A stretch of DNA of 64,000 bases from assembly GCF_030605225.1 (NCBI RefSeq), contig NZ_JAUWAV010000001.1:1-64000 (forward strand), in the 5' to 3' direction. Made by a program: the position numbers and the translations under genes. This document shows, piece after piece, positions 330 to 17,616 of this stretch. Each line of letters starts with the position of its first letter. Within the stretch, counting starts at the first letter, position 1. The DNA comes from Geoalkalibacter sp. (lineage in GTDB: Bacteria > Desulfobacterota > Desulfuromonadia > Desulfuromonadales > Geoalkalibacteraceae). A model generated the notes under the pieces. The model was not told the origin of the DNA. It was given only the letters and a program-made list of their open reading frames with translations, and did not search any database.

Positions 330-363
330 AACAAAATGTTTTTCCCGGAGGCCAAAACCGACC

Positions 364-417
364 AGATAACAACGGCTTGCACCGGATTAGACCCCGGTGA
401 AGCCGCAGCCGTTCGCC
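364..417 (+). other. attC-like site 0 (left boundary of cassette 1)
   Basis: R''-like AGATAAC (364-370) and R'-like GTTCGCC (411-417) flank an imperfect hairpin (CGGCTT/AAGCCG with inner CACCGG/CCGGTG). Its R' is the exact reverse complement of the R'' of site A, so it marks the left edge of cassette 1. It could be a divergent attC or an attI-like primary site. No left-hand partner with GTTATCT is found in the window. Confidence 0.6.
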
Positions 418-418
418 G

Positions 419-646
419 CTAAAAATCAGTCCCGTCATTTTCGACCGAAGGCATCATGCCACGCAGTCGCCGTGCAGATTCGGCCATCACAAGATCGGCG
501 TCACGGTCGAGTTCCGCAGGCACCCTCATGGTAAATTCACTATCCATCCGTCCGCGCCCGGTGGAAACAACGTCTGCCAATTCGTCAAGGCGGGCGGCCA
601 GCACTTCATTCGGAACGTCTGCGCTTTTTCGATACTTTGTGCTCAT
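419..646 (-). CDS. Cassette 1: hypothetical protein (75 aa)
   Basis: A 75-residue acidic protein (MSTKYRKSADVPNEVL ... ENDGTDF) with no recognised domain. The middle (EFTMRVPAELDRDADLVMAE) is compatible with a small helical protein. The ATG is chosen for its Shine-Dalgarno GGAGGCAAGAGAG directly upstream. The stop lies two bases from the R' core of site 0 and the start 27 bases from the R'' of site A, so the gene fills its cassette. It is encoded antisense to the attC direction, co-directional with the phage early genes. Confidence 0.6.
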   Translation of the reverse strand: MSTKYRKSADVPNEVLAARLDELADVVSTGRGRMDSEFTMRVPAELDRDADLVMAESARRLRGMMPSVENDGTDF

Positions 647-672
647 CTCTCTTGCCTCCTGTGGTGAAAAGC

Positions 673-744
673 GGCGAACCAATCAGTCAAGCGGACGCCG
701 GACCGCTGGCGCGGCCGGGTCCGCCGCTTACCTCATCGTTAGAT
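673..744 (+). other. attC site A (closes cassette 1)
   Basis: R'' GGCGAAC (673-679), then AATCAGTCAAGCGG as left box, a GC-rich stem region with GGACC/GGTCC, right box CCGCTT, and R' GTTAGAT (738-744), a perfect GTTRRRY. The site is 72 bp. GGCGAAC is the exact reverse complement of GTTCGCC in site 0, the pairing expected of a circularisable cassette. Confidence 0.8.
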
Positions 745-745
745 T

Positions 746-1432
746 CTAAATCGGCGCAAAGGCATTTAAGGCCAATGCGATCAGCGCGTCTCTGAAATCA
801 ACAGGGGTCGCGTTTGCCTCCCGCTTCCCCAGCGTCGGCTTGTTCCGGTCTTTTCCGCGTTGGTCGTGGAATCCTACCTGGTGCGTTCCGATCGGTCGCT
901 CCCACCGCAATTCAAGCGGTTTCCTTCGTCCCTTGTAATACAGCCATGTGGCCTTATTCGCTCGATGACCATAGGCGCTTTGCCATACCTCGCATACCCA
1001 TCCGATGCCGCTTCGGCTCCACCCTACGCCCGTCGGTCTTACCAACCCGTGCGCTTTCCATGCCCTTGTTTTGGCCGGGTGCTCCAGCACTCCGCCCCAG
1101 CGGTTCACGGCTGCAAGTGCGGCGGAAAAACACCCGCCGTCGTTTCCTGGCCTGTTGTGTTCTCCGCCCCATCGGGCGAAGTTCACGTTTGCCATCGCCC
1201 CCCACAGTTGGCAGGGTGGGTGAGCCACCACCGGCAGTGGTCCAGCGTAATTTCTAGCGTCCCTTTTCTCGTCCCACGGGTCTATTCCGGCCATACCCAC
1301 ATAGCATCCGTCTGGCTGCACAAACAGGGCGGCAACCCTATGGCCTTCGGCCAGCGCCGATTTAAAATCTAACCCATCGATCGAGGCGGACGGGTTACAC
1401 TGTTCTGGTTCTCGAAAAAAGTTCTGCTGCAT
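746..1432 (-). CDS. Cassette 2: phage protein with weak C5-methyltransferase-like features (228 aa)
   Basis: The sequence includes VVAHPPCQLWG, GGVLEHPAKTRAW and YGHRANKATWLYYKG. A Pro-Pro-Cys motif, a following LEHP and a basic ATWLYY segment recall motifs IV, VI and the target-recognition start of cytosine-C5 methyltransferases, but a clear SAM-binding FxGxG is not visible. Treat the assignment as tentative; it could be a degenerate or truncated family member. The start follows a strong GGGAGGAACA. The TAG stop falls one base after the R' of site A. A neighbouring cassette carries a definite DNA methyltransferase, so an anti-restriction role is plausible inference. Confidence 0.6.
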   Translation of the reverse strand: MQQNFFREPEQCNPSASIDGLDFKSALAEGHRVAALFVQPDGCYVGMAGIDPWDEKRDARNYAGPLPVVAHPPCQLWGAMANVNFARWGGEHNRPGNDGGCFSAALAAVNRWGGVLEHPAKTRAWKAHGLVRPTGVGWSRSGIGWVCEVWQSAYGHRANKATWLYYKGRRKPLELRWERPIGTHQVGFHDQRGKDRNKPTLGKREANATPVDFRDALIALALNAFAPI

Positions 1433-1438
1433 TGTTCC

Positions 1439-1471
1439 TCCCAACGCCGCCGCTCATCTCACCCGTTAGAA
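1439..1471 (+). other. attC site B, left half deleted
   Basis: The right half (CCGCCGCT ... CTCA ... GTTAGAA at 1465-1471) closely resembles that of site A (CCGCCGCTTACCTCATCGTTAGAT). It joins directly to the ribosome-binding site of cassette 2 with no left box. The R''-like TCCCAAC (1439-1445) does not match the expected ATCTAAC. The site looks like a deletion derivative that has fused cassettes 2 and 3. Its R' still pairs with the R'' of site C over eight bases (GTTAGAAA). Confidence 0.6.
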
Positions 1472-1477
1472 ATCCTC

Positions 1478-1753
1478 CTACCGTTTTGGGACAGGTGGCG
1501 GCGGTGGTGCTGGAGGCCTTGGCGGCATCCACTCGGAATTTAAGGCATATTCATTTGCTCTTTCCTTTGTTGGTACGCACTTGGCGCAAACATATTTCAA
1601 GTGACCATGCCCGTTGAAAAAAGGACCGCTGAGGAACCTCCAGCCTTTTTCGCGGCGGAATTCTTTATTGCAGGCACAGCAGAGGTGCCAGCGGAACAGG
1701 GAGAAATGCTTAAAAATCCCATGCTCGTATTGTTTGATATGTTGTCGTTTCAT
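1478..1753 (-). CDS. Cassette 3: hypothetical two-CxxC protein (91 aa)
   Basis: A basic 91-residue protein with CCAC at about residues 25-28 and CAKC at about 56-59, spaced as in a small treble-clef or zinc-finger fold, and a proline-rich tail (MPPRPPAPPPPPVPKR). No named family is recognised. The ATG at 1753 lies 13 bases from the R'' of site C and the TAG is six bases from the R' of site B. The polyproline tail may be disordered. A DNA- or protein-binding role is only inferred from the paired cysteines. Confidence 0.6.
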   Translation of the reverse strand: MKRQHIKQYEHGIFKHFSLFRWHLCCACNKEFRREKGWRFLSGPFFNGHGHLKYVCAKCVPTKERANEYALNSEWMPPRPPAPPPPPVPKR

Positions 1754-1766
1754 AGGAGCCTCGGTT

Positions 1767-1824
1767 TTCTAACCAGTTAATCAACCGGATTCGCTACGCT
1801 CTCCGGTTATCTTTATCGTTAAGT
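1767..1824 (+). other. attC site C (closes cassette 3), 58 bp
   Basis: R'' TTCTAAC (1767-1773), left box with TTAATCAACCGGA, a perfect 7-bp inner stem AACCGGA/TCCGGTT (1783-1789 with 1802-1808), and R' GTTAAGT (1818-1824). The length is that of the classic 59-base element. Its R'' extends to TTTCTAAC and matches the R' of site B. Its R' continues as GTTAAGTGTCAC, matching the R'' of site D over 12 bases. Confidence 0.85.
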
Positions 1825-1825
1825 G

Positions 1826-2578
1826 TCACTGCGCCGCCAGCAATAGGCACCCTTGCGATAGGCGCTCTACGATCTTGCGGCAGTATTCCTCTTTCCCCTC
1901 GATCCCAACCGCCCGCAGCCCGAGCTCCCGCGCAACGGCCAGGGTCGTCCCGCTCCCCGCGAAGAAGTCCAGCACGGTCCCGCCAGGGGGTACGCTGTAC
2001 TGCAGCAGCGGGCGGATGATCGCCTCCGGCTTCTGAGTCGGGTGTACGGCGTAGCCGTGGCAGCTCCGGGCGTAGATCACCGACTCCTCGAGGCGCGGCC
2101 CACCGTCTTCCGAGCGGTACACCGCCTCCCCGATGTCGCCCCACTGGGGCGGGCGCTTCTTCCGGCGCACCGTCCGGGCCGTGGCGTCGTTGGTGTAGAT
2201 CGGGCTCTTGTACAGGTCGGCCCAGGCGGTCCCCTTCCGGTAAAAGTGGGCGGCCAGCTCATGCACCCTCCTGAATCGGTCGTTGAACGGGTTCGTGCCG
2301 TTGTGCTTCTGCCAGATGATGTCCTGCGCCATCTGCCAGCCAGCCAGGTCATAACCCTTGTCCATGAACATCCGCAGCGACCCGAAGCACCACATCTGCG
2401 GAGCCACCGTCGCTGCGACTTTCGGCCACCCTTCCGGCCAGCGGTCCCACTCCAGCGAGGTCTCACCATACGGCGGATCGGTCACGATCGCGTCAGCGGT
2501 CAGGCCGAGCGCGGGCACGATCTCCCGCATGTCTCCACGGTACAGGGTAATTTGATCGTCTTCGTAATAAGGCTTCAT
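1826..2578 (-). CDS. Cassette 4: DNA (adenine-N6 or cytosine-N4) methyltransferase, 250 aa
   Basis: Catalytic motif IV DPPYGE lies at about residues 34-39. The SAM-binding motif I appears near the C-terminus as VLDFFAGSGTTLAVA, followed by VGIEG. That order (IV before I) marks a beta-class amino-methyltransferase. HPTQKPEAI just before motif I is also typical. No restriction endonuclease is adjacent, so it is an orphan enzyme; phages often use these for anti-restriction (inference). The target cannot be read from sequence. The TGA stop is one base from the R' of site C and the start 25 bases from the R'' of site D. The RBS is weak compared with the other cassettes. Confidence 0.93.
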   Translation of the reverse strand: MKPYYEDDQITLYRGDMREIVPALGLTADAIVTDPPYGETSLEWDRWPEGWPKVAATVAPQMWCFGSLRMFMDKGYDLAGWQMAQDIIWQKHNGTNPFNDRFRRVHELAAHFYRKGTAWADLYKSPIYTNDATARTVRRKKRPPQWGDIGEAVYRSEDGGPRLEESVIYARSCHGYAVHPTQKPEAIIRPLLQYSVPPGGTVLDFFAGSGTTLAVARELGLRAVGIEGKEEYCRKIVERLSQGCLLLAAQ

Positions 2579-2602
2579 GACTGTCGCTTTCTACCCGGTG
2601 AC

Positions 2603-2673
2603 ACTTAACCAATCAATCCAGCGGACCGGCTGGGGCTGGCTCCCCACCGGTCCGCTGATCTCAGTCGTTAGCC
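2603..2673 (+). other. attC site D (closes cassette 4), 71 bp
   Basis: R'' ACTTAAC (2603-2609), then CAATCAATCC, a perfect 10-bp stem AGCGGACCGG/CCGGTCCGCT (2620-2629 with 2647-2656), and R' GTTAGCC (2667-2673). Upstream of R'' the match to the start of the cassette continues as GTGACACTTAAC, 12 bases in all. The TAA stop of the cassette 5 gene lies inside this R'. Confidence 0.88.
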
Positions 2674-3036
2674 GCCATGAATCACACGCCCTACAGGCTT
2701 GAGTCCATAGAGCTGTTTTGCCGTTGCCGCCTTCACTGCCCGGTCATGGCACAGAATCTTGTTGTGCATCAGCTTCACCAGGGCAGAAACCCGTCCATGC
2801 GCCGCACTTCCGAGTGCGTTATCGCTATCCTCAGCCAAATTAAGCAAATGTTCGGTTGCCTCTCCCATCAGTTCAAAAGCCTGGTTTATTTGCTGGGTGG
2901 CGGTCTCCCATCGCGTAATTGCTCGCTCCATTTTTGTGAGCGCCCATTCCAGCTCTGCCGCCTGGTGCCGCACTTCATCATCCTCGCGGGCCTCTGCCGG
3001 GCCAATGCCTTGTTGTATCAGGTCTGCACGTTCCAT
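2668..3036 (-). CDS. Cassette 5: helical hypothetical protein (122 aa)
   Basis: Highly helical, heptad-like sequence (ELEWALTKMERAITRWETATQQ ... AFELMGEATEHLLNLAEDSD), so probably a coiled-coil or small helical bundle of phage type; no family is recognised. It has a very good Shine-Dalgarno, GGAGGTACTT, before ATG. The stop codon overlaps the R' core of site D and the start is 17 bases from the R'' of site E. Antisense to attC like its neighbours. Confidence 0.65.
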   Translation of the reverse strand: MERADLIQQGIGPAEAREDDEVRHQAAELEWALTKMERAITRWETATQQINQAFELMGEATEHLLNLAEDSDNALGSAAHGRVSALVKLMHNKILCHDRAVKAATAKQLYGLKPVGRVIHGG

Positions 3037-3052
3037 AAGTACCTCCAGCAGC

Positions 3053-3125
3053 GGCTAACAAATAAATCAACTCGGACAGGCATTCCGCTGCGCTCCATGC
3101 CTGCCGGTTATTTCAGCCGTTAGGG
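3053..3125 (+). other. attC site E (closes cassette 5), 73 bp
   Basis: R'' GGCTAAC (3053-3059), AAATAAATCAACTCGG as left box, stem CGG-A-CAGGCAT/ATGCCTG-CCG with an unpaired A, right box GGTTATTTCAG, R' GTTAGGG (3119-3125). The unpaired base in the left arm is a known attC strand-choice signal. R'' extended (GCGGCTAAC) is the reverse complement of GTTAGCCGC at site D. Confidence 0.88.
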
Positions 3126-3160
3126 CGCAGCCCGCAATTGAAGCTGCGCCCCACGTTCGA

Positions 3161-3421
3161 TCAGACAATAGACCAGTCATCTGCCAGCATGTCAGTTTGG
3201 CTCGCCAGCCAACCAACTACGCACTTCCCTTGTGCATCCCTCATGCAGAAGTGAGGGCAGCTTTCAAATGTGGTACTTCCGCTACCATCAACCATCGGCC
3301 CAGATGCGTTTTCGATAACACGCCCTTCACGTAGGAAAATGAACATATTTTTCCCATTCCATCCCTCACGCGCTACCTTGTTTCCTGCTTTCATCGCTTC
3401 AATCGCCTGTCCAAAATTCAT
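3161..3421 (-). CDS. tad2: Cassette 6: DUF2829 / Tad2-family protein (anti-Thoeris), 86 aa
   Basis: The N-terminus (MNFGQAIEAMKAGNKVAREG), followed by WNGKNMFIFL, and the C-terminal WLASQTDMLADDWSIV are the diagnostic blocks of DUF2829. A central HFCMRDAQGK matches the family's ICM-type segment, and length is typical (80-90 residues). Characterised Tad2 proteins sequester the cyclic ADP-ribose signal of Thoeris immunity; that function is by homology and untested here. A good GAGGTAGAAA Shine-Dalgarno precedes ATG. It is the cassette nearest the phage backbone. Confidence 0.88.
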   Translation of the reverse strand: MNFGQAIEAMKAGNKVAREGWNGKNMFIFLREGRVIENASGPMVDGSGSTTFESCPHFCMRDAQGKCVVGWLASQTDMLADDWSIV

Positions 3422-3443
3422 TTTCTACCTCGCTCAAAAAGCG

Positions 3444-3548
3444 CCCTAACAATCAAATCAAGCGGACTGAAAATACGTCTGCAATACCCGTAAAAGTTAG
3501 AGCTAGTTTCGGCTGTACGGCGCAGCCGCTTATCAGTATACGTTATGC
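3444..3548 (+). other. attC site F (closes cassette 6), 105 bp
   Basis: R'' CCCTAAC (3444-3450; GCGCCCTAAC extended matches GTTAGGGCGC at site E), left box AATCAAATCAAGCGG, stem AAGCGG-A-CTG/CAG-CCGCTT with an unpaired A (3460-3469 with 3523-3531), an unusually long terminal loop, and R' GTTATGC (3542-3548). GTTATGC is a common R' in chromosomal integrons. This is the right edge of the array; phage backbone follows. Confidence 0.88.
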
Positions 3549-3559
3549 AGGGGATGACA

Positions 3560-3721
3560 CTATTTCATCTCTTTTGAATCTTCTTTCCCCCATCTTTTCC
3601 CCGCCATCTCTTTTGCCTGCTCACTGGTCAACTTTCGTCGCGACCTGCGGCCTTGGATTCGCGCCGCCTCCTGAAGGACGACGGTTTCAGAGATATCCTT
3701 GCTGCAATGAGGGCACTTCAT
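3560..3721 (-). CDS. Small zinc-ribbon-like protein (53 aa)
   Basis: A short ORF beginning MKCPHCSKDISETVV and ending KEDSKEMK, with one CPHC knuckle and a strongly basic middle (RIQGRRSRRKLT). The ATG overlaps the stop of the upstream 513-residue gene (ATGA) and has GAGGAG 9 bases upstream, so translational coupling supports it. One CxxC pair alone would need dimerisation or a partner to hold zinc. A DNA- or RNA-binding role is inference. Confidence 0.6.
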   Translation of the reverse strand: MKCPHCSKDISETVVLQEAARIQGRRSRRKLTSEQAKEMAGKRWGKEDSKEMK

Positions 3722-5259
3722 TGGGGTGACTCCTCAGCCTTGTGGTTAAATTGTTTGCCGACGTGAAAGATCTCCTCCTGAGAAAGACGCTGGAGATGGT
3801 TGACTGCGGCATTGTAAATAAACAGGTCAAGAGGCCCGGCCACCTGTTTGCGAACAACGTCCCGAAAGATCGCCATGGCGGTGGGCGACAGACCGGAAAT
3901 ACGGATGAGGCGCACGGCCGAACCGTCAAGGGCGTAAAAATGGAGGGTATTCCCTTGGGTTGTCAGGAACTTTTGGACCCGGTTATCCCGGTAGAGCCCG
4001 GCATGAAAAGGAGCATCGAGACAGCCCACCGGGGCGGGGAACTTGAAGACCCAGCAGCACAGGTTCTCCTTTCCCCCCGTGTAAAGGGAATAGCTGGAAA
4101 AACCTTTCTGCAATGCCTTCACTTCCTGCGGGGTCGGCGGGGTGCGGTCTTCGACGGGTGGCGGAGACGCCGTCAGGGCCGCGTCTCGAATGCGCCGGGC
4201 GGCTTCGGAGATCTCCAGGGCGCCTGGACTGACGCCGAACTCGCAGCGCTCGGCGAAGTCAAGCACTTCCTCGAACTGCTCGGCAGGCACGACGACGGAG
4301 GGTTTATCCCACCGGCTGCCGGGAAGTTTGCGGGCGGCATCGTATAGGCGGCGGTTGTCCTCCTGCCAGCGGATTGCAAACCACCCGGCATAAGATCCGG
4401 CGGTGCGCTTCGTCACCCAGCGGGTGACCTCGGGTGGATAGTCTCCGGAGACGGCGGCGGCGCGCACGGCGGGATCGAAGAGGCGGACGATGAAGCCTGC
4501 GGCAAGAAGTCGGTGCCCCGCCTCGGCGGCGCGGTCCTTCGCGGCCCCCGTGGTGACCGATATTCGCCGTCGCCAGCACGACCCGGCCCACTCGTAGCCT
4601 AGCTGCTTTTTGATGATCTTCCAGAAATCGTCCCGCTTTTCCGGGAAGATGACTTCGACGGCATTTTCGAGAGGGCGGATCTCTGCGACGGTTTCGGTGA
4701 GGGGAACTTCGGGGCGGACGGTGGCTTCAGCCTGAGCGTCCAGAGCGGCGGGGATACGGTCTTTACGCTCTTTGGCGACGATCTTGGCGCGCTCCAGAAT
4801 TAAATGCCCGATACGGGTCGTCCGGTTGTCGATCCACCAGTGGGCCGACCTCTCGCTGCGCAGAAGCTCGGCCGCCTCGCGAACGCATGAAAGAGATTCC
4901 TCTATGGAGGCAAAACCATCCTCGACGGCCACTTCATCGGCCCGCCGCCGCCGCTCGTCGTTCAGTGATGCTAGTTTCCCCTCGTAGGATGCGACGGCCT
5001 GGTCGATTTCACCGATCCTTTCGGCGCGGATCGTCTCGGCCCAACCGATCTGTTTTTCGGTGCCGGTTAGGGCTGGGAGACCGGCTTCGGAGTTCGCCGA
5101 TGCTGCGCGGGTGTTCTCATCCTGGCGCTGCCTCTCTTTGCAGGTGTCGCATGTCCAATCCCATTTTTCAAGCTTATACTGACGGTCGCGAGAAGGTCCA
5201 TAGAGTCGGACAGTAGATGTGGCGTTGCAGGCGGGGCATTCGACTTGATATTTTGCCAT
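3718..5259 (-). CDS. Hypothetical protein with N-terminal zinc ribbon (513 aa)
   Basis: An N-terminal four-cysteine ribbon (CPAC at about residue 9, CDTC at about 37) is followed by a charged helical region (IGWAETIRAERIGEIDQAVA), then a globular part with KRDDFWKIIKKQLGYEW and CWRRRISV and a C-terminal domain containing YTGGKENLCCW. I do not recognise a named family. Position in the early leftward operon, coupled to the 53-residue zinc protein, suggests a DNA-transaction role, but no nuclease, ligase or ATPase motif is visible. Start by GGAG upstream of ATG 5259. Confidence 0.75.
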   Translation of the reverse strand: MAKYQVECPACNATSTVRLYGPSRDRQYKLEKWDWTCDTCKERQRQDENTRAASANSEAGLPALTGTEKQIGWAETIRAERIGEIDQAVASYEGKLASLNDERRRRADEVAVEDGFASIEESLSCVREAAELLRSERSAHWWIDNRTTRIGHLILERAKIVAKERKDRIPAALDAQAEATVRPEVPLTETVAEIRPLENAVEVIFPEKRDDFWKIIKKQLGYEWAGSCWRRRISVTTGAAKDRAAEAGHRLLAAGFIVRLFDPAVRAAAVSGDYPPEVTRWVTKRTAGSYAGWFAIRWQEDNRRLYDAARKLPGSRWDKPSVVVPAEQFEEVLDFAERCEFGVSPGALEISEAARRIRDAALTASPPPVEDRTPPTPQEVKALQKGFSSYSLYTGGKENLCCWVFKFPAPVGCLDAPFHAGLYRDNRVQKFLTTQGNTLHFYALDGSAVRLIRISGLSPTAMAIFRDVVRKQVAGPLDLFIYNAAVNHLQRLSQEEIFHVGKQFNHKAEESPQ

Positions 5260-5387: not shown

Positions 5388-5654
5388 CTAGGTTTCTTGA
5401 ACAATCCTTCGCACCTGCCGTTTCTTGAGACGATACTTAATAGCCAACTCCTCCGTGTTCGCACCGTCAAACTCAACCCGGATGCGCCGGTTGCGCTCGG
5501 TGCGATAAAGCGTCTGCAGATCCGGGAAAGTCAGTCGCAGACCGCCGACCTCTTCGGCGTACACCTGGATGATGACCGGAGCAAGGCGGCCAAATTCGCG
5601 ATGCAACCGGTCATAGAGCTGTGCCAGTATTTCCGCATTGTCTCCGCGGGTCAT
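5388..5654 (-). CDS. Mor-family transcription activator-like protein (88 aa)
   Basis: The C-terminal half (RIRVEFDGANTEELAIKYRL, then KKRQVRRIV) matches the helix-turn-helix block of the Mu Mor/C activator family (I-x-x-E-F-D-G-x-N-x-x-E-L-A-x-K-Y-x-L). An N-terminal dimerisation-like helix precedes it. Mu Mor activates the middle promoter and 88 residues is near family size. The start overlaps the stop of the recombinase gene upstream (ATGA), so the two are translationally coupled. Its target promoter is unknown; the array-exit promoter at 284-312 is one candidate. Confidence 0.8.
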   Translation of the reverse strand: MTRGDNAEILAQLYDRLHREFGRLAPVIIQVYAEEVGGLRLTFPDLQTLYRTERNRRIRVEFDGANTEELAIKYRLKKRQVRRIVQET

Positions 5655-6625
5655 GCGTCCCCCTTTTCGATATCGTTGAACCGCTTATCCGGAATCGCCG
5701 TGCGATGTAAGGTCCGTTCGGAAATCGCCACATACCCCATGGTCGTCTTCGGGTCATCGTGCCCCATCAACGCCGCCAGTTCGAGAATCCCGACATAGTT
5801 GATCGTCTGGCTGCACCGCGGGCATTTGTCGTGCCCGCTGTCGTAGAGATCCGTGGCAAATGTCGAGCGCATTTTGTGGCAAAACACTTCGGCGGAAGGG
5901 ATGCCGACAATGCGCGCATATTTTTTCAGGATTTTCTGGATTCCGCCGGCGCTCAACCGCAGGGGTTCTTTCTGCATCCGGATGAACAGCGCATCGGTGG
6001 GTGTCTGGATGCCACGGCGCAGCACCAACCATTCGCGCAGCGTCGCCGAGGGGTTGCGGCGCAAGGTCAGGGTGCGATGCTTGCCGCCCTTGCCGCTGTA
6101 GATTTTCAGTCGGATATACCCGCCGGTGTCGACCAGGTGCGAGAGGTCCAGGGCCACCAGCTCGGAAACCCGCACGCCCGAGGCGTACAAGGTTTTCAGC
6201 AGCGCCAAGTCGCGCAGTCCTGCGGGGGTGGACAGATCCGGAGCCGAGAACAGCAGCCGCAGCTCTTCGGTGCTGAACTTTTGCGGCAGCGACGGCTGAA
6301 TTTTCGGGGAGGGGATGCCGCGCGTCGGATCCGCCGGGCTGATGCCTTCAGCCTTGGCCCACCGGAAGAAAGAGCGCACGGCTGAAAGCTTGCTGGCGCG
6401 GCTTCGGTTTGAGAGATTACCCATCTCGTAATAAAGCGCCTTCATCCAATCCGCCACCGCCGAGCGCTGCACATCGGCGACCTCGATGCCGATTCCCTGG
6501 TCCAGGTACCAGCGCACAAACGAGCGCAAGGACGCCTCATAGCGGGCCACGCCGCGCGGCTGCTGCCCCTTGAGCACCAGGAGGTAGTCTCTCCATTGGT
6601 GGATAGCCGTCTCAAAATCCATCAT
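5651..6625 (-). CDS. Tyrosine recombinase with CxxC insertion (324 aa)
   Basis: An N-terminal SAM-like core-binding domain (residues about 5-95) precedes the catalytic domain. Visible catalytic positions are R in SGVRVSEL, K in GKGGKHR, HKMR, GH in LMGHDD and Y in TTMGYV. Between HxxR and GH there is an extra segment DSGHDKCPRCSQTINYVG with a CxxC, not usual for XerC/D. It lacks the extra helix that marks integron integrases, so it is not a typical IntI. It is coupled to the Mor-like gene. Start is the first of two adjacent ATGs, behind a G-rich GGGGGGA. Confidence 0.85.
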   Translation of the reverse strand: MMDFETAIHQWRDYLLVLKGQQPRGVARYEASLRSFVRWYLDQGIGIEVADVQRSAVADWMKALYYEMGNLSNRSRASKLSAVRSFFRWAKAEGISPADPTRGIPSPKIQPSLPQKFSTEELRLLFSAPDLSTPAGLRDLALLKTLYASGVRVSELVALDLSHLVDTGGYIRLKIYSGKGGKHRTLTLRRNPSATLREWLVLRRGIQTPTDALFIRMQKEPLRLSAGGIQKILKKYARIVGIPSAEVFCHKMRSTFATDLYDSGHDKCPRCSQTINYVGILELAALMGHDDPKTTMGYVAISERTLHRTAIPDKRFNDIEKGDA

Positions 6626-7402
6626 TCCCCCCGCACCCCCCACTTTTGGAAAATCCTTTTAGAAAATCCCCGCGATATGAGCTAGCCATAGGGGGGCACC
6701 CCGAGCCGACCCGCCAAACCTTTTGTAGGGGGGGAGGGGGTAGAAACCGCCCCGTCCAAAAACCTACCGCACTTTTCTTAATGGAAGATTAACTCAACCC
6801 TTTGATTTTCCGTTGCCTGGAATTGCCACAACCGCACTTTTTAACAGTTTGTGCGGTCCCTGATTTCGCTTTTTTTCGGTCGGAAATCTTTACACTTTTG
6901 TTTTTCACGCGACAAGAGCAGCCATAGGGACTAAGCGAAGCTTGATAAACAGTGAGCCCACGCGAAAAACAAGAGAAAAGAAATCGGTGCAGTAAAGTGT
7001 ATTTTTGGACCCTCACCACAAACACCCCCAAGCAAAAACTTAAGATTTTAGCGACCCCCAAGACATATTTCTGACTGCACCACTGCACCACTTGCCTCCC
7101 AACCCAGTATCCATGCGGGTTCGGGGCGTGGTGCAGTCTAAAAAACGCCCCCACAACTGCACCACAACTGCACCACACTGCACCACAACTGCACCACAAC
7201 TGCACCACGATAAAACTTAGAAAAATTAATAACTTAAGTCAAAAGTGGTGCAGTGGTGCAGTTGTTTTGAAAAATGCGCCTCGCGCGCGCAAAACCTTAA
7301 GTAAGAAGCAAAAACGACCAGATTTTGCCATTTTGCTACCCTGTTCTCAGATTGCCCTAGACAACTGCACCACGGTTATTGAGACTGCACCACGCTGCAC
7401 CA
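6626..7402. other. Non-coding replication/control region
   Basis: This 777-bp interval has no convincing gene. The left part holds G-rich runs (about 6727-6744) and two copies of ACCGCACTTTT near 6767 and 6830. The right part holds the iteron field, with an AT-rich stretch at 7209-7244. A 139-codon minus ORF spans it, but its N-terminus is just translated iterons. Confidence 0.6.
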
Positions 7403-7403
7403 C
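7075..7403. repeat. Iteron-like field: 13 copies of CTGCACCAC
   Basis: Exact 9-mers CTGCACCAC lie on the + strand at 7075, 7083, 7157, 7168, 7178, 7189, 7200, 7365, 7385 and 7395, and reverse-complement copies start at 7128, 7245 and 7253. The run at 7157-7208 has 10-11 bp spacing, one helical turn, so bound proteins would sit on one face. An AT-rich segment (7209-7244) lies between forward and reverse groups and could be an unwinding element. Position beside the primase-ATPase suggests a replication origin (inference). Confidence 0.75.
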
Positions 7404-10400
7404 TACCTCACCAGCGTGTAGCGCATCTTCAGGTAGCGCTGGCCGCGGATCACGCGGAAATAGGGTGCCTTGCCTTCGGTCTCGATGATCTCCCAGCCGC
7501 TCTTGGCCAACAGGCCCCGGTCATTCCTCAACCGCGCGATAAACACCGAGGCCGACTCATAGGGATTTCGCTTGCCGGTCGATTTACAATAGCGGTCGAA
7601 AGCATCAACGATGTGGGCACTCGTGGCCACAAACTCGATGGTCGACTTTGAATAAGTCTCCGCTCGGCAGGCACAGGTGCCGCCGAGCTTCCCGCACTCA
7701 GCACAGACCGTCTCAGGCGTCGTCTTGACCATCTTCAGACTGTATTCCGGATGCTCCAGGACCCACACCTCGTCTTCGTAGTCCGGATCCGGCCCTTTGA
7801 CGACATTCTTTTCCTTCATCAACTTCAAGTGCTCGCGCACCAGGCCATCCAGCAGCTGGATGATGCTGTTGCTGCCCTGTTCCGTTTCCTTCGCCGCCGC
7901 GTTCTGTTCCTCGATCCAGGCCTTGTAAATATCGGTTTCACCCGATTCGACCCCGAACATCACATCTTCCGGTCCCCAGTAAGGGATATACTTCAACATC
8001 TTGGAGAGAATCACCATCAGCAGAGCCAAGTAGGCATTCGTTCTATCTTTTGCGTGCCCTTTATACTGGCGGTTCAGAATCGTCATGAACTCCTTGCGCA
8101 TATCCAGGTTCGACATAACATCTTTCTGGATAAAACGCAGAAGAGCCGACATAATCATGTCGCGCTTTTTTTTGATCTGCTCCAACACTTCCGACTCGTA
8201 AAACGAATCAGAACCGTGAATCCGCCGATCAAAAGGGATCTCAAACGTCCTGCTGATCAATTCAGACAGCGTAAACGGCTCAATCGCCGTGATACACACC
8301 AAGGACCGCGGACTCTCGTCAATCGTTTCCCGATCCGTGCCCCCTTTACGCTTTTCCTTCTGGCCCCTGGTGGCCGCCAGCAGCAGAAACTTCTGCATGC
8401 CGCGCGTCAAATCCTTATGCTCCAGGTTGTCAATGACCAGGATCGGGTTCTGCGCCGCCGACGAAAACGCCGCCGCGCCTGAAGGATCGCTCAACTGATC
8501 ATTACCATAAGTCAACGTCGTGATAAATTTCGCCGCCGTCGACTTCCCCGAACTCGCATACCCTGAAAACTTCATCAAAAACTGGTACGGTGCAAACTCA
8601 GGGCACAACCCCGAAATCAACCACGACAGGATCAAATATTTCTGCTTGCGCTCCACCGCCAGGTTGTCAAAAATCAATTCCTTCAGGGCCGTCATGCCCT
8701 CCTGGATGTCCGTGTCCGGCAAGAAATTCATCGGCATGATCTTCGACGATGACGACAGCAGCACATGGTCATCATTCATGCCGTTCTGGATTTCCTCGAT
8801 CCGATCCCGCGACACCTTCAAAATCGTATTGTTCGGGCCGTTGAGGTTCAGGAATATCGTGTCTCTGACCACATCCGTGTGAATCCACTGGCACCGATCT
8901 ATCCGCCGGCCGCCCAGGTACGCCGTGTGCTTCAACGCGCTCCACATCTGCGCCCCTGGCGCCTTCTCCGGGATCATCCGCGTCAATTTCAGCATCAGCG
9001 CGTTGAACGCCGTCCCGTTCGACACCTCATAGGTCCGATTTTGATAGATCAACCAGACCCGATCCTCCGAATCAAAATAAAAGCGCCCGTGGTGCGCAAA
9101 AAACTTGAAGCAAATCTCTCCCAACACAATTGGATCAGCATCTTTCGGATTCTCAAACCCAACCATGTATTCATGGATCTGATTCATCAGATCCTGGCTG
9201 AAATCAAGCTGCTGCTCGACCGCCTTTGGAGAAAATCCAAGATGCGAAAGCTTTTCCTTGAAAACATCCTGTTGAATTGCCGGCTGACTGCCGATCGCCC
9301 GAAAAACCTTATGGTCCTTCAGATGTTTCAGTTTTTCCTCAAGCGACGGCAGCACCGCCGCGCGCAGAATTTCCCAAGAAACATAGTCCAGAGCTTCCAA
9401 TTGAAGCCTGCGGATTTCCTGCTTGCGATTCCCTTCAAATCTCTTCAGATAAGAGTCAGGGTCATCACCCGGCTTGCCGTAGGCAATAATGCGCACGCTG
9501 ATGTCAGACCCAAGGGCCGCACAGATCTTTCGCACATATTGGTCACCAGCCGCATCGTTATCCACCCACAGATACAAATGCTTTCCGCGACATTTCTTCG
9601 AAAGAGCCTTAATCTGCGCGTCAGAAATCTGCCCGATCATCGCCATGACATAAGAAATTCCGGCATTCAGCACCTGAAGCCGATCATTCTCGCCTTCCAC
9701 GACAATGATTTCGTTGTGCCGATCCAGAACATCCTGGCCGTAAAACACCCAGCGGGTATCGCGGAAATCATTCGGCAACTGATATTTCAGTTTTTCAGCC
9801 GCAGGAATGTCGCGCGGATCCTTCATCGTGAAGTGCAGAACCCGCCCACCGCCGTAATGCGGAAAGATCGCCAATCCCTTGGCGAAAAAATCCAGCAAAC
9901 GCTTCGCCCCCTCGATCTCCTTTTCTTTCACCAGGCCGGATTCAAGAATCTCGCGTTCACCAAACCCCTGTTCGCGCAGATGATCCAACAAACGGCCATC
10001 CGACCAGCCCACCTTTTCGCGCAGCAAGGTCTGTTCTTCATGCCCGCGCCGGTCGACGAAATACTCACGCCCGCCGTTCTGCAGCATGTGGCTGTGGTAG
10101 TAATCCGCCGCCGCCAGGCGGATCTTATCCACCTGGCTCAACCTGGGGGCGCTTTTCGGCTTCTTCTGCTCCAGCTCGATCCCCGCCAACTCGGCGGCCT
10201 TCTTCAAGGCCCCCTCGCGATCCAACTGGAGATATTTTTCAAGGAAAATAAAAACATCCCCTTTTTCCGGGCACTGAAAACACTTGAACGTCCCCTCGTA
10301 ATTCCCTGTCTTCGGAATGGAAAAACAATCCTTCCCATGACAGAAAGGGCACTCTTGCAGATGCCCGGAGCTGCCGATCGTCAGCCCCGTTTGAGCTGTG

Positions 10401-10453
10401 ATCACGTCCCGGATGGAGAGGGCGGATTTGATGCGCTGGAAGTCGTCGTGCAT
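7403..10453 (-). CDS. DNA primase fused to P-loop ATPase/helicase (1016 aa)
   Basis: The N-terminus has a CHC2-type zinc-binding domain (CPFCHGKDCFSI ... FKCFQC, about residues 30-65) as in DnaG. A TOPRIM domain follows, with IIVVEGEND and the acidic WVDNDAAGDQ. The C-terminal half has a Walker A in GYASSGKST and a Walker B-like ILVIDN, fitting a ring or AAA-type ATPase. It probably primes and unwinds element DNA at the adjacent iteron field. ATG 10453 shares one base with the stop of the upstream gene (TAATG); longer in-frame extension is ignored. The stop abuts the last iteron. Confidence 0.88.
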   Translation of the reverse strand: MHDDFQRIKSALSIRDVITAQTGLTIGSSGHLQECPFCHGKDCFSIPKTGNYEGTFKCFQCPEKGDVFIFLEKYLQLDREGALKKAAELAGIELEQKKPKSAPRLSQVDKIRLAAADYYHSHMLQNGGREYFVDRRGHEEQTLLREKVGWSDGRLLDHLREQGFGEREILESGLVKEKEIEGAKRLLDFFAKGLAIFPHYGGGRVLHFTMKDPRDIPAAEKLKYQLPNDFRDTRWVFYGQDVLDRHNEIIVVEGENDRLQVLNAGISYVMAMIGQISDAQIKALSKKCRGKHLYLWVDNDAAGDQYVRKICAALGSDISVRIIAYGKPGDDPDSYLKRFEGNRKQEIRRLQLEALDYVSWEILRAAVLPSLEEKLKHLKDHKVFRAIGSQPAIQQDVFKEKLSHLGFSPKAVEQQLDFSQDLMNQIHEYMVGFENPKDADPIVLGEICFKFFAHHGRFYFDSEDRVWLIYQNRTYEVSNGTAFNALMLKLTRMIPEKAPGAQMWSALKHTAYLGGRRIDRCQWIHTDVVRDTIFLNLNGPNNTILKVSRDRIEEIQNGMNDDHVLLSSSSKIMPMNFLPDTDIQEGMTALKELIFDNLAVERKQKYLILSWLISGLCPEFAPYQFLMKFSGYASSGKSTAAKFITTLTYGNDQLSDPSGAAAFSSAAQNPILVIDNLEHKDLTRGMQKFLLLAATRGQKEKRKGGTDRETIDESPRSLVCITAIEPFTLSELISRTFEIPFDRRIHGSDSFYESEVLEQIKKKRDMIMSALLRFIQKDVMSNLDMRKEFMTILNRQYKGHAKDRTNAYLALLMVILSKMLKYIPYWGPEDVMFGVESGETDIYKAWIEEQNAAAKETEQGSNSIIQLLDGLVREHLKLMKEKNVVKGPDPDYEDEVWVLEHPEYSLKMVKTTPETVCAECGKLGGTCACRAETYSKSTIEFVATSAHIVDAFDRYCKSTGKRNPYESASVFIARLRNDRGLLAKSGWEIIETEGKAPYFRVIRGQRYLKMRYTLVR

Positions 10454-10749
10454 TACAGATTCGCCTTTTCGTTTGCCGCCACATATCTCCGAAAAACTTC
10501 CAGCAAGGCCCTGAAATACTCCAGCACCTGCCGTTTGAATTCCTCGTCGAACACGCCGTTGGCCCACAATTCGTTGACCTGCTCGCCGCTCGCTCGGTAC
10601 TTCCGATACAGTTCGTCGTCCTGCCGCGCCGCCCACTCCAGGGCGGAACCATCCACCCTTCGCAGAGCCGGCGCAAAGCGCTCGGCAAAAACCGCCTGCG
10701 CCTGATCCCCCTTGGCTTTAAAAAACGCCGCGCAGGCCTCGATGCTCAT
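10453..10749 (-). CDS. Hypothetical early phage protein (98 aa)
   Basis: A mostly helical, charged protein (MSIEACAAFFKAKGDQ ... VFRRYVAANEKANL) with no recognised domain. It sits exactly between the SSB-like gene (ATGA overlap) and the primase gene (TAATG overlap), so it is translated as part of the replication operon. A loader or primase accessory is possible from position only. An upstream TTG at 10755 is an alternative start; ATG 10749 is preferred for the overlap. Confidence 0.65.
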   Translation of the reverse strand: MSIEACAAFFKAKGDQAQAVFAERFAPALRRVDGSALEWAARQDDELYRKYRASGEQVNELWANGVFDEEFKRQVLEYFRALLEVFRRYVAANEKANL

Positions 10750-11735: not shown

Positions 11736-12347
11736 TCATATCGCCCCCACTTTCTCCATGTGCTCCCTGGTCGGAGCGGTATAGATCAACGTCGAATTCA
11801 TGCTCTTATGCCGCAACTGCCGATTGACAAACTGCAACGCCCGCATCCGCTCATCCTCCGACAAATGCCGCGTGTCATGCATGATGCGCTGCGCCTTGGT
11901 GTGCCTCAGCCCATGCGGGGTGATGCGCGACACCCCAGCCTGCGCACACCATTTGTCCACCAAGTCGTTGAAGCTGCGCAGACTCAAGCGCGTTCCCCGA
12001 CGCGAAACAAACAGCGGCGCATCCTCGCCCAGGTCCTCCTTCCACTGCCTCTTGAGGCGCAGAAACCCGCGCAGCAACTCCTGGAGTTCCTGCGCGATGT
12101 GAACCTCGCCCGTCGCGCCCTTCGCCGCGATCCGCTCATCCACCACGATCTTCTCGCGCCCCGCGACATCCCCGACATTCAGCCGCAACGCCTCGACGCG
12201 CCGCAGCCCCGTCAAGCGGCAGAGCTTCAGCAACACGAAATCACGCTCCGCCTGCCGATCCTTCAGCCGCCGGAGAAAAGCCCAAAGCCTTTTCTCCTCG
12301 TCCGCCGTCCAATAATTCGTGCCTGCCTTGGTTTCGATCGACTGCAT
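11736..12347 (-). CDS. Small tyrosine recombinase (203 aa)
   Basis: Catalytic residues are visible as R in LTGLRRVEAL, K (IAAKGAT), HGLRH, H in QLRHKS and Y in TLIYTAPT. The N-terminal core-binding domain is very short, so most of the protein is the catalytic domain. It begins MQSIETKAGTNYWTADEE behind GAAGGAGGCGACC. It lies mid-operon, not at an att site, and differs from the integrase at 15,782. Possible roles are dimer resolution or inversion (inference). Confidence 0.85.
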   Translation of the reverse strand: MQSIETKAGTNYWTADEEKRLWAFLRRLKDRQAERDFVLLKLCRLTGLRRVEALRLNVGDVAGREKIVVDERIAAKGATGEVHIAQELQELLRGFLRLKRQWKEDLGEDAPLFVSRRGTRLSLRSFNDLVDKWCAQAGVSRITPHGLRHTKAQRIMHDTRHLSEDERMRALQFVNRQLRHKSMNSTLIYTAPTREHMEKVGAI

Positions 12348-12441
12348 GGTCGCCTCCTTCCATGAAATCGCCTCTGAAGAGAGCCGGGCAGGCGGCGAGG
12401 CGTCACCGCTCTTCAGGAGCGACCCTAGCCCGGCAAGTCGA

Positions 12442-12636
12442 TTACCTTGAACTTTCTTGAGGGTCAAAAACCCCATCAACTCCACGCCATGTCCTAGGCG
12501 AAAAAAAAGAGCAGTCCGGCAAACCCTCCCCCTTCGCCCACGCCATGACCGTCAACCGATGGTGGAGCGCCGCGTCCGCGCATCGCCGCACGCGGCACAG
12601 CGTGCACAAAACGACGAACTCCGCCGCGGCCAACAT
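12442..12636 (-). CDS. Small hypothetical protein (64 aa)
   Basis: Begins MLAAAEFVVLCTLCRVRRC. The ATG overlaps the stop of the MazG-like gene (TGATG), which is the main support. It has one CTLC pair and a basic stretch. No family recognised and no separate Shine-Dalgarno is obvious, consistent with coupled re-initiation. Confidence 0.45.
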   Translation of the reverse strand: MLAAAEFVVLCTLCRVRRCADAALHHRLTVMAWAKGEGLPDCSFFSPRTWRGVDGVFDPQESSR

Positions 12637-15781: not shown

Positions 15782-16888
15782 GTGGCTGTCCGTCCAAAAA
15801 AAGACAAGCACGGGCGCATCATCCCCGGCGAATGGGTCATCGACGTTCGACTCGAAGGGTACAAGGGGCCGCGCGAGCGTTTGCCGTTTGTCGGCACCGA
15901 AGCCGAAGCCCGCGAAATCGAAATGGCCTTGCGGCTCAAGCACCGTCCCCGTGTCGCCGATCTCACCGCGCCGACCGTCCTCGATGCGCTCCCAGAATTC
16001 CTGCGCGACTACAGCAATCACGTCACCAAAGGCACCCTGGGCGACTTCCATTGGGCGTGGAAGCAGCTCGAACCCCTCTTTGCCCAAGCCCGGCTGGCCA
16101 ACATAACGCCGGAACTGGTCGAGGCCTACAAAGCCAAGCGCCTTGCCGACGGCGTGAAAAAGCGCACCATCAACCGCGAGCTTTCCTACCTGGCCGCTAT
16201 TCTGCGCTGGGCTGAAGAGCAACGGATCATTCCCCCCATGCAATACCGGGTCAAGCGCTTCCCCAAAAAGCAAACCATCAGCCCGGTCCCCATCGTGCAT
16301 TCTCCCGAAGAAATCCAGGCCGTCCTCGACCAGCTCAACCCCAAGATCCGCGCCATAGCCCTGCTTCTCTATGATGCAGGCCTGCGCCGCGCCGAAGCCA
16401 CCACTCTGACCGGCGCACAAGTCGATCTCCCCATGGGCATCATCCGTGTCGTCGGCAAGGGCGGCAAAGAACGCATCGTGCCCATCCTCACCGAGCGCCT
16501 GCGCCACGAACTCGCCGAACGCATCGACCAGGTGGGCCGCGGCTACCTCTTCATCAATCCGGCCACCGAACAGCCCTACAAAGAAATTCGCGTCAGCCTG
16601 CGCAACGCCGCCGCCCGCGCCGGTGTCGACAAACGCATCTACCACCACCTGCTGCGCCACAACCATGGAACCCACGCCGCAATGGCCGAAGTCGATCCAC
16701 GCGCCGTGCAAAAAATGATGGGGCACAGCAACCTCAGCACCACCGAACTCTACACCCACCTCGCCGCCGACTTCATCAAAAGCCAGGGCAAAAAATTCGC
16801 CAGCTTCATCAAGCAACCCTCGGCAAAGCCCCCACAGACCAAAACCGTGGACAGAATTACGAAGAAAAAAAACACTGAAAACGAATAG
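15782..16888 (+). CDS. int: Tyrosine integrase of the element (368 aa)
   Basis: An arm-binding N-terminal region (about 1-60), a core-binding domain (about 65-160), and a catalytic domain with R in AGLRRAEA, K in GKGGKER, HHLLRH, GH in MMGHSN and Y in TTELYTHL. It starts at GTG one base after the stop of the AT-rich gene, so it may be co-transcribed with the repressor. It ends 20 to 40 bp from the tRNA-Leu fragment, so it most likely catalyses integration there. Confidence 0.93.
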   Translation: MAVRPKKDKHGRIIPGEWVIDVRLEGYKGPRERLPFVGTEAEAREIEMALRLKHRPRVADLTAPTVLDALPEFLRDYSNHVTKGTLGDFHWAWKQLEPLFAQARLANITPELVEAYKAKRLADGVKKRTINRELSYLAAILRWAEEQRIIPPMQYRVKRFPKKQTISPVPIVHSPEEIQAVLDQLNPKIRAIALLLYDAGLRRAEATTLTGAQVDLPMGIIRVVGKGGKERIVPILTERLRHELAERIDQVGRGYLFINPATEQPYKEIRVSLRNAAARAGVDKRIYHHLLRHNHGTHAAMAEVDPRAVQKMMGHSNLSTTELYTHLAADFIKSQGKKFASFIKQPSAKPPQTKTVDRITKKKNTENE

Positions 16889-16906: not shown

Positions 16907-16962
16907 ATTCAGGGTCTAGTGGCCGTAGGGCCGTGGGAGTTCGAGTCTCCCCTTCGGCACCA
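16907..16962 (+). other. attR: 3' fragment of tRNA-Leu (CAG)
   Basis: The sequence from the anticodon loop (TTCAGGG) through a long variable arm (GGCC GTA GGGCC), T-arm (GGGAG TTCGAGT CTCCC), acceptor strand CTTCGGC and ACCA is a tRNA-Leu 3' portion. Upstream bases do not form a D-arm or 5' acceptor, so the gene is incomplete here. This is the expected signature of integration into a tRNA 3' end; the whole tRNA should be at the left junction. Confidence 0.88.
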
Positions 16963-17031: not shown

Positions 17032-17616
17032 TCATTCCCACAACTCGTCCGTTCCCGCTTCCCGCCGCTTTCTTTTTTCCAGTGAGGCCAGCAGTTGTCG
17101 CTCGCGACGGGCGATCTCCGGCTCGGAGGTTTTACGAATGCGGCGCACCAGTACCGAAAAATCCTTCTGCGCAAAATAGATCACGCGGCCATGAATGCCG
17201 CCGAGATCCTCGGCCATGAGGGGAATTTTTTCGTTGAGCAGAAATTCGCGGACGAATCGGCAGTTGAGTTCACCGACGCCGGGGCCGGTGGATTTGGGGG
17301 CGATGATGGTGGCGCCGCCGAATACCTTGGCGCGCAAGTGCCGGCGTTGGGCGCCGAGTTTAAGCATGTCGTTGATGAGCAACTCCATGGCATGCACGCC
17401 GTAGCGTCCCGATTCGCTGAGTAGCAAGGGCAGGGTGCTCAGGCTGCGGGTGCCGCAGAGCAGAAAGTGATTCATGCCGATGATGCGCTTGACCGGATCG
17501 TAGAGACAGGCCGCCACGCAGGAGCCAAGCAGGGTCGAAAGCACGATGGCGTCGGCGCTGGCCCGATATTCGCCGGGCAGGATGGAGATGAGAGGCGTTG
17601 GAAGGGAGTCGGGCAT
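17032..17616 (-). CDS. cheD: Chemoreceptor glutamine deamidase CheD (194 aa)
   Basis: STLLGSCVAACLYD carries the catalytic Cys33, GMNHFLL the catalytic His50, and KVFGGAT is the conserved strand of the CheD fold. CheD deamidates glutamines in chemoreceptors and can interact with CheC. The C-terminus has a charged extension (RRERQLLASLEKRKRRE). It stands alone beside the element, far from the che operon at 34-43 kb. The start has GGAG upstream. Confidence 0.93.
   Translation of the reverse strand: MPDSLPTPLISILPGEYRASADAIVLSTLLGSCVAACLYDPVKRIIGMNHFLLCGTRSLSTLPLLLSESGRYGVHAMELLINDMLKLGAQRRHLRAKVFGGATIIAPKSTGPGVGELNCRFVREFLLNEKIPLMAEDLGGIHGRVIYFAQKDFSVLVRRIRKTSEPEIARRERQLLASLEKRKRREAGTDELWE

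What the first reader, a model, noticed from the sequence alone, without database searches (positions are those of the whole stretch)
364..3548. Integron-type gene cassette array, without integrase, inside a prophage-like element
Sites at 364, 673, 1767, 2603, 3053 and 3444 have attC architecture: RYYYAAC, left box, stem with unpaired base, right box, GTTRRRY. The R' opening each cassette is the reverse complement of the R'' closing it: GTTCGCC, GTTAGAAA, GTTAAGTGTCAC, GTTAGCCGC and GTTAGGGCGC, matches of 7, 8, 12, 9 and 10 bases. Cassette excision and insertion at R' predicts this and ordinary hairpins do not. Cassettes are usually found in chromosomal or plasmid integrons, so an array inside a phage early region, with phage-type genes, is unusual.
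Basis: partly seen in the sequence, partly recalled or inferred. Interest (0 to 1): 0.92.

Follow-up and report, generated by a model that had tools for sequence, protein, structure and literature searches.

The report
Prophage integron cassettes with reversed genes
A bacterial virus hidden in this genome carries a row of swappable gene cassettes like those that spread antibiotic resistance, but each gene points backwards in its cassette so that it follows the virus's own genes; many other viral arrays show the same reversal, which suggests that viruses trade anti-defence genes with a borrowed bacterial tool.

Summary
Window 363-3549 has seven attC sites (one, 1366-1472, was missed; one, 363-418, is weak) bounding six cassettes; all score on the + strand with a model built from other genomes, and opening and closing R boxes pair best in the true order (1 of 720). 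The array lies in a ~43.8 kb prophage (31-bp repeats, tRNA-Leu) without integron integrase; the host has an intI-linked array elsewhere. Cassette 5 recurs at 96.8-99.6% DNA identity in four other viral contigs, identity ending at the cassette borders.

Dereplicated IMG/VR cassettes: 81 antisense, 8 sense, 57 undecided; bacterial genomes found with one of the same patterns: 7, 89, 113. Viral arrays fetched through their own intI: 23, 1, 15. Cargo includes DNA methyltransferases, Lar anti-restriction and, in the window, Tad2.

Phage attC clusters are published (PMC9892861); I found no report of this reversal. Mobility, expression and function are inferred, not tested.

The parts
363..418 (+). 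attC-like site 0, weak; at the end of the array where intI lies in intI-bearing phage arrays; R' GTT at 411
   Evidence: R2 16.8 bits, E 0.057; its R' pairs over 10 bases with the R'' of site 1
672..745 (+). attC site 1
   Evidence: R2 43.4 bits
   Evidence: R2 60.6 bits; R1 37.9 bits
1766..1825 (+). attC site 3
   Evidence: R2 45.0 bits
2602..2674 (+). attC site 4
   Evidence: R2 50.3 bits
3052..3126 (+). attC site 5
   Evidence: R2 57.6 bits
3443..3549 (+). attC site 6
   Evidence: R2 66.7 bits
419..682 (-). cassette 1 (about 411-737): 87-aa ORF without known relative
   Evidence: ORF; no Pfam or PHROG match, none among fetched loci
746..1444 (-). cassette 2 (about 738-1464): phrog_12600 protein, function unknown
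   Evidence: E 7.8e-66; 75-76% identical in L030, L064, L347
1478..1753 (-). cassette 3 (about 1465-1817): 91-aa ORF with weak relatives only
   Evidence: phrog_19515 E 0.009; 34% in L123, E 1e-9
1826..2578 (-). cassette 4 (about 1818-2666): N6/N4 DNA methyltransferase
   Evidence: PF01555 E 2e-33; phrog_67 E 1.9e-47
2668..3036 (-). cassette 5 (about 2667-3118): protein of unknown function; the cassette recurs in other viral contigs
   Evidence: 95-100% protein identity over at least 121 of 122 residues in five viral loci; blastn borders; junction letters
3161..3421 (-). cassette 6 (about 3119-3541): Tad2-like anti-defence protein
   Evidence: PF11195 Tad2-like, 97.9 bits, cut-off 25, E 4.8e-28
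3718..5259 (-). phage gene next to the array (phrog_16123 match)
   Evidence: 52% relative in L272
5388..5654 (-). Mor-like transcription activator
   Evidence: PF08765 E 1.6e-12
5651..6643 (-). phage tyrosine recombinase, not an integron integrase
   Evidence: PF00589 E 1.6e-22; TIGR02249 only 24.7 and 20 bits, cut-off 265
7403..10636 (-). phage primase
   Evidence: CHC2 zinc finger and Toprim domains; 53-70% identical in L289, L323, L280, L341, L331
11736..12485 (-). second phage tyrosine recombinase
   Evidence: PF00589 E 2.1e-19
15782..16888 (+). tyrosine integrase next to the prophage att site
   Evidence: PF00589 E 2e-28; TIGR02249 pieces of 49.2 and 46.2 bits, below cut-off
16932..16962 (+). 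prophage att repeat; the other copy ends the tRNA-Leu on contig C36
   Evidence: 31-bp exact repeat; tRNA-Leu at L052 12945-13031

Best explanation
A phage-borne integron cassette array (attC sites without intI, a CALIN) in a tRNA-Leu prophage, one of a wider set of phage arrays whose cassette genes run antisense to attC and in the direction of the phage genes. Shown by sequence: attC sites and their polarity, paired cassette borders, no integron integrase over the cut-off in the genome except on C35, a cassette shared between viral contigs with exact borders, variable content at this locus in related phages, and reversed genes in most decided viral cassettes, including those of arrays with their own intI. 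Inferred: cassettes move by IntI acting on the folded attC bottom strand, supplied here by the host integron or a co-infecting phage, and in related phages by their own intI; the cassette genes are read from the phage operon, which is why they must point with it; the cargo (methyltransferase and Tad2 here, Lar and more methyltransferases in other arrays) is an exchangeable counter-defence kit. A reversed cassette that lands in a host integron would point away from the cassette promoter and should be silent there.
For: R2 polarity; R'/R'' pairing 1 of 720; cassette 5 identity from 2664-2667 to 3122-3126 in L142, L143 (same contig as L040), L144, L145, different letters outside and different neighbouring cassettes in the window, L142, L143, L145; in the cassette-5 loci 16 of 16 attC matches are antisense to that gene. 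Att repeat and tRNA-Leu; portal and tape-measure matches on C36. Host intI with three attC sites. Orientation, dereplicated: IMG/VR 81 A, 8 S, 57 undecided; bacterial genomes 7 A, 89 S, 113 undecided; Fisher p 4e-34 on decided ones. Viral intI-linked 23 A, 1 S, 15 undecided against chromosomal intI-linked 3 A, 29 S, 19 undecided, p 2e-11. Without the coding score: 126 antisense ORFs match 78 PHROG and 23 Pfam families, 102 sense ORFs of the same cassette set 4 and 1. In 80 intI-bearing viral loci 76 of 78 attC matches lie on the strand opposite intI. Flanking genes: 100 of 152 viral flank sides are at least 80% antisense to attC, 28 at most 20%, 24 between.
Against: No recombination or expression was measured. 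The coding score leaves 57 of 146 dereplicated viral cassettes undecided and decides only 2 of 6 in the window. By longest ORF the viral excess is weaker: 68 A, 35 S, 61 undecided (window 5 A, 1 undecided); with no margin 128 A, 24 S (window 4 A, 1 S). Cassette 1 has no relative and cassette 3 only weak ones. Some viral arrays have sense cassettes (L054, L111, the L099 group and others). Viral loci were picked by exact patterns that see one attC type. Site 0 is weak. L146 shares only one border of cassette 5. TJE1, a published phage, has its one detected site in sense.
Confidence: 0.85

Rival explanations
1. A decayed piece of the host's own chromosomal integron was captured by the prophage and is inert.
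For: The host has an intI-linked array; captured host integrons are reported in Vibrio phages (PMC9892861). This array has no intI and one weak end site.
Against: The two bounded host cassettes carry sense genes by longest ORF, the prophage cassettes antisense ones. Cassette 5 is shared with other viral contigs; R box pairs are intact.
Confidence: 0.06
2. The hairpins are RNA elements of the phage operon (terminators, processing sites) that merely look like attC.
For: Each hairpin precedes a gene on the phage transcript; PMC9892861 cites that attC sites may act as weak terminators.
Against: Predicts neither the R'/R'' pairing across each gene, nor cassette borders inside CGTTA, nor intI beside such arrays in related phages. 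Both roles could coexist.
Confidence: 0.03
3. Same array, but the reversal is historical lock-in of one lineage, without functional meaning.
For: Cassettes are shared between viral contigs, so a pool of one polarity could persist by descent.
Against: Viral intI do not form one clade: 8 label changes, at least 5 forced, while intI-linked viral cassettes are 23 A to 1 S. One array type with sense genes, the L099 group, has sense flanks too, which fits co-orientation with phage genes. The tree's chromosomal set is only 12 rows, one of them (L050) phage-like.
Confidence: 0.3
4. The reversal serves recombination: with genes antisense, the attC bottom strand is the non-template strand and is exposed during phage transcription, so cassette exchange is coupled to phage gene expression.
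For: Follows from the geometry seen and from the known bottom-strand preference of IntI (abstracts and text in PMC9892861).
Against: Not tested; the arrays with sense genes and sense flanks (L099 group) do not fit it.
Confidence: 0.2

Closest known systems
CALINs and integrons in phage genomes (Qi et al. 2023, PMC9892861; parts 1-4 of 7 and a term search read, supplements not seen)
   Same: attC clusters without intI in phages, several with DNA methyltransferases; 5 of 6 tested phage attC sites recombined with attI1 by IntI1; the authors suggest cassettes help against restriction.
   Different: 17 CALINs and 4 phages with intI in 10,705 genomes; TJE1 and PH101 cassettes are called typical, P12002L attC sites divergent. 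With R1, four PH101 matches (E 5e-5 to 0.19) and three MW202573 matches (E 0.012 to 0.064) lie opposite to the annotated genes around them; the one TJE1 match is sense; the best P12002L match (E 0.13) is opposite. The words reverse and opposite do not occur in its main text.
Chromosomal integrons of this bacterial order (own C35; G005, G008, G037, G051)
   Same: Same type of attC, found by the same model.
   Different: Genes mostly sense to attC, with intI in cis.
Treponema integrons (PMC3607928, passages read)
   Same: intI and cassette genes point the same way.
   Different: There the paper describes intI transcribed toward the cassettes; in the phage arrays intI and attC keep the usual opposite polarity (76 of 78) and the genes are turned instead.
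Single reversed cassettes in chromosomal integrons (symE/sRNA-Xcc1 in Xanthomonas, PMC12444791, passages read)
   Same: Cassette genes pointing against the array and not under Pc.
   Different: Exceptions in a sense array, not the prevailing state.
Integrons as stores of anti-phage genes (Science and Nature Microbiology 2025, seen only as references in PMC12444791)
   Same: Integron cassettes in the phage-host arms race.
   Different: Those carry bacterial defence; here phages carry counter-defence.

Membership tests
CALIN (attC cluster lacking integrase; definition from PMC9892861) | At least two attC sites, neighbours within 3 kb | tested here: met
   Seven sites in 3.2 kb, six above 43 bits; my model, not IntegronFinder or HattCI
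CALIN (attC cluster lacking integrase; definition from PMC9892861) | No integron integrase linked | tested here: met
   Only one match over the TIGR02249 cut-off in the genome, on C35
Complete integron | intI and attI in cis | tested here: not met
   No intI in the prophage; attI was not searched for by a model
Canonical integron gene cassette | R' and R'' of a cassette complementary, border at G|TTRRRY | tested here: met
Canonical integron gene cassette | Gene in sense to attC | tested here: not met
   Six ORFs antisense; three with family matches on that strand and one conserved in other viral contigs
Mobile cassette | Same cassette in different contexts | tested here: met
   Cassette 5 in four other viral contigs with both borders
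Mobile cassette | Recombination by IntI | not testable with these tools
   Needs an excision or insertion assay
Temperate prophage | att repeats, integrase and structural genes | tested here: met
   31-bp repeat at tRNA-Leu, integrase, portal and tape measure; the two contigs were linked by a 141-base overlap only; terminase not confirmed
Thoeris anti-defence protein Tad2 | Tad2-like domain | tested here: met
   PF11195 97.9 bits, cut-off 25, whole length
Thoeris anti-defence protein Tad2 | Sequesters the Thoeris signal | not testable with these tools
   Needs an infection or binding assay

The most novel reading that the evidence does not exclude
Phages keep a cassette economy of their own on integron machinery: a pool of counter-defence cassettes with genes reversed relative to attC, expressed only when built into a phage operon and silent in a host integron, so that one kind of recombinase serves two gene pools kept apart by gene polarity. 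Host integrons may even store phage cassettes unread: an antisense cassette in an attC array of G008 (about 13 kb from its intI) is 65.6% identical over 90 residues to a phage cassette in L142. Exchange may also be coupled to phage transcription.
Probability: 0.5. Interest if true: 0.92.

Novelty: new variant of a known kind. Interest (0 to 1): 0.86.

Why it matters
Integrons are known as bacterial stores of resistance genes and, recently, of phage-defence genes. If phages use the same recombination system in mirror image to swap methyltransferases, Lar and Tad2, the arms race runs through one kind of enzyme on both sides, and gene polarity inside a cassette tells which side it serves. That is directly testable, gives a simple rule for finding counter-defence genes among unknown phage ORFs, and means that annotation which assumes sense genes would misread phage arrays.

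Tried and rejected
Relatives by the flanking gene 3718-5259: none in IMG/VR by peptide patterns, three weak phage records, none in 57 other genomes of the order; a 52% relative turned up later in L272. Rfam has no match in the array; its one match in the window is int-alpA. R1 finds no site in the Rctr41k stretch fetched (13,633 of 41,271 bases) nor in the last part of PH101; R1 sees one attC type, so this says little. The window phage's terminase was not confirmed: no Pfam match for L013:15758-17569 and 17569-18450, and one PHROG of unknown function for the latter; they are presumed from their place before the portal. A single origin of viral intI was not supported. Counts (viral 109 A, 10 S, 45 undecided of 164) were replaced by those after retraining on more loci (91 A, 10 S, 63 undecided of 164; dereplicated 81, 8, 57). 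L050 was counted as chromosomal but is phage-like; without it the chromosomal count is 29 S, 2 A. Of the 7 antisense cassettes in bacterial genomes, L222 (two) lies by terminase and portal genes and L201 (two) by Erf- and Gam-like genes, L168 looks like a transposase by eye, L158 and L153 are unexplained. For the hallmark test 81 of the 86 ORFs listed were given, from 47 of 80 loci. Longest-ORF and no-margin calls are weaker and are told in the report.
Full report
THE SITES. The window is the start of contig C1 of a 3.71 Mb, 89-contig genome. For a model without window sites I built R2 from 67 matches (one counted twice) in six loci of five other genomes; they had been found with R1, but their polarity agrees with the neighbouring intI in all 67. 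One of these loci, L050, later proved phage-like. R2 finds seven sites in the window, all on +, and nothing else in 104 kb; site 0 at 363-418 is weak. The opening R' of each cassette pairs with the R'' that closes it over 10, 8, 8, 12, 9 and 10 bases; no other of the 720 pairings reaches the sum.

THE GENES. Between the sites lie six ORFs on the - strand. Three have family matches on that strand: phrog_12600 (cassette 2), N6/N4 DNA methyltransferase (cassette 4), Tad2-like (cassette 6). The cassette 5 protein is 95-100% identical over at least 121 of 122 residues in five viral loci. Cassette 1 rests on the ORF alone, cassette 3 on weak matches. So the genes run against their attC sites.

THE PROPHAGE. 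The last 141 bases of contig C36 are the first 141 of C1, as expected of contigs that adjoin in an assembly graph. A 31-bp repeat lies at C36 18273, at the 3' end of tRNA-Leu, and at window 16932-16962. The element between is about 43.8 kb, with portal, minor head, minor tail and tape-measure matches on C36 and primase, Mor-like activator and three tyrosine recombinases on C1. None of these recombinases reaches the integron-integrase cut-off. On the phage strand the array follows the Mor-like gene and the gene 3718-5259 and precedes the presumed packaging genes and the portal.

THE HOST INTEGRON. C35 carries intI (404.8 bits) with three attC sites before the contig ends; by longest ORF the two bounded cassettes carry sense genes (the coding score decides one of the two). 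One encodes a CAP12/TIR-type effector. IntI over the cut-off occurs in 25 of 58 genomes searched, own included.

CASSETTE MOVEMENT. A DNA search with window 2200-3600 shows a block from 2664-2667 to 3122-3126, that is cassette 5, in L142 (99.6%), L143 (98.7%; L040 is the same contig), L144 (98.7%) and L145 (96.8%); identity stops at both borders and the next letters differ in each. L146 shares one border only; L147 and L148 hold fragments. The neighbouring cassettes differ between the window, L142, L143 and L145. In these loci 16 of 16 attC matches are antisense to the gene. Cassette 2 has relatives of 75-76% in L030 and L347, directly beside an attC, and in L064, 320 bp from one.

RELATED PHAGES. 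Six intI-bearing viral loci (L280, L289, L290, L323, L331, L341) share genes with the window phage: primase 53-70%, presumed terminase 50-83%, tyrosine recombinase 5651-6643 53-63%, Mor 58-72%, not every gene in every locus. They were found through intI, so this says nothing on how common intI is in the family. Between the Mor-like gene and the next conserved gene there are 67 bp and no site in L341, one attC in L289, two attC sites, cassette genes and intI in L290, two genes without a detected site in L331, and genes on the other strand in L280, where the stretch ends; the more distant L125 and L139, alike in this stretch, hold two sites (one weak) and two antisense genes between them. This is gain and loss at one locus.

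ORIENTATION. I scanned IMG/VR with three exact attC patterns and added the cassette-5 loci; R1 gave the sites. A codon score trained on long ORFs of the fetched loci called each cassette. Dereplicated: 81 antisense, 8 sense, 57 undecided of 146 cassettes; 71 loci had a bounded cassette. One of the patterns in GTDB genomes: 7, 89, 113 of 209; 52 of 80 loci. Fisher p 4e-34 on the decided ones; by locus majority 52 antisense to 8 sense (11 tied or undecided) against 3 to 36 (13). Other criteria, not dereplicated, agree in direction: longest ORF 68 A, 35 S, 61 undecided against 8, 169, 35; no margin 128 to 24 against 40 to 148. Homology, which does not use my score to find families: 126 antisense ORFs match 78 PHROG and 23 Pfam families, 102 sense ORFs of the same cassette set 4 and 1. 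Genes beside the arrays: of 152 viral flank sides 100 are at least 80% antisense to attC, 28 at most 20%, 24 between; of 89 bacterial sides 13, 43 and 33.

PHAGE INTEGRASES. Six attC-found viral loci carry an IntI-like gene above 150 bits. A scan from these and the host's fetched 80 loci; 76 of 78 attC matches lie opposite to intI, as in usual integrons, yet the cassettes are 23 antisense, 1 sense, 15 undecided (dereplicated; 20 loci had a bounded cassette), and coding on the intI strand has a median of 0.95. Of 81 large ORFs from 47 of these loci 15 match one terminase family and 10 one portal family, so many are phages. In a tree with 12 sequences labelled chromosomal (L050 among them) the 76 viral ones need 8 label changes, at least 5 forced; one clade of 13 is all viral. 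So intI entered or left phages several times.

PUBLISHED PHAGES. Four PH101 matches (E 5e-5 to 0.19) and three MW202573 matches (E 0.012 to 0.064) lie opposite to the annotated genes; the one TJE1 match is sense; the best P12002L match (E 0.13) is opposite (gene tables).

MECHANISM. Shown: sites, polarity, borders, sharing, locus variation. Established knowledge (recalled, and PMC9892861): IntI acts best on the folded bottom strand of attC and inserts circular cassettes in one orientation. Inference: cassette genes are read by the phage operon, so selection favours genes that point with it; where array polarity opposes transcription this means antisense genes. The bottom strand is then the non-template strand and, in phages with intI, new cassettes would join the promoter-far end next to intI, the reverse of the usual order of expression. 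The cargo fits counter-defence: N6/N4 methyltransferases in 8, MT-A70 in 3, Lar in 3, C5 methyltransferase in 1 and Tad2 in 1 of 126 ORFs, the window's included.

LITERATURE. Nine answered searches on integrons with phage, orientation, antisense, CALIN, viral genomes, anti-defence and Tad2 brought one paper on phage integrons as such (PMC9892861; parts 1-4 of 7 read, and a term search). In what I read it does not report reversed genes or a cassette shared between phages. The library holds open papers only; listings were judged by title and abstract start; absence there is not proof.

Noticed in passing
L011 (C35:36101-46099) 8612-9370: A sense cassette of the host integron encodes a CAP12/Pycsar-type TIR effector (PF10137, E 5.3e-37), a defence gene, in the genome whose prophage array carries a Tad2-like anti-defence gene.
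   Followed up: partly
window 12370-12435 (-): int-alpA RNA (RF02996), 36.5 bits against a gathering score of 35.8, beside the tyrosine recombinase 11736-12485.
   Followed up: no
G000 C43:33068-33775 and C35:26-214: Pieces of a tyrosine recombinase at the end of C43 and the start of C35 (65 and 98 bits to TIGR02249, below cut-off), perhaps one gene split by a contig break.
   Followed up: no
L054, L111, L099/L118/L120/L121/L126: Viral arrays with sense cassettes; in L118, L121 and L126 all and in L099 and L120 the measured flanks are sense as well.
   Followed up: partly
L271-L283: Thirteen viral IntI sequences form one clade (support 100/100) on a long branch without chromosomal members.
   Followed up: partly
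L050 (G023:C3:188000-198000) and L222 (Methylobacter MAG): Antisense cassettes in bacterial genomes next to terminase or portal genes; in L050 intI is followed by a terminase: likely prophage arrays.
   Followed up: yes
KX853513.1 4680-5678 (L353): Virus Rctr41k encodes an IntI-like protein annotated xerD in a one-strand gene row; R1 found no attC in the stretch fetched.
   Followed up: partly
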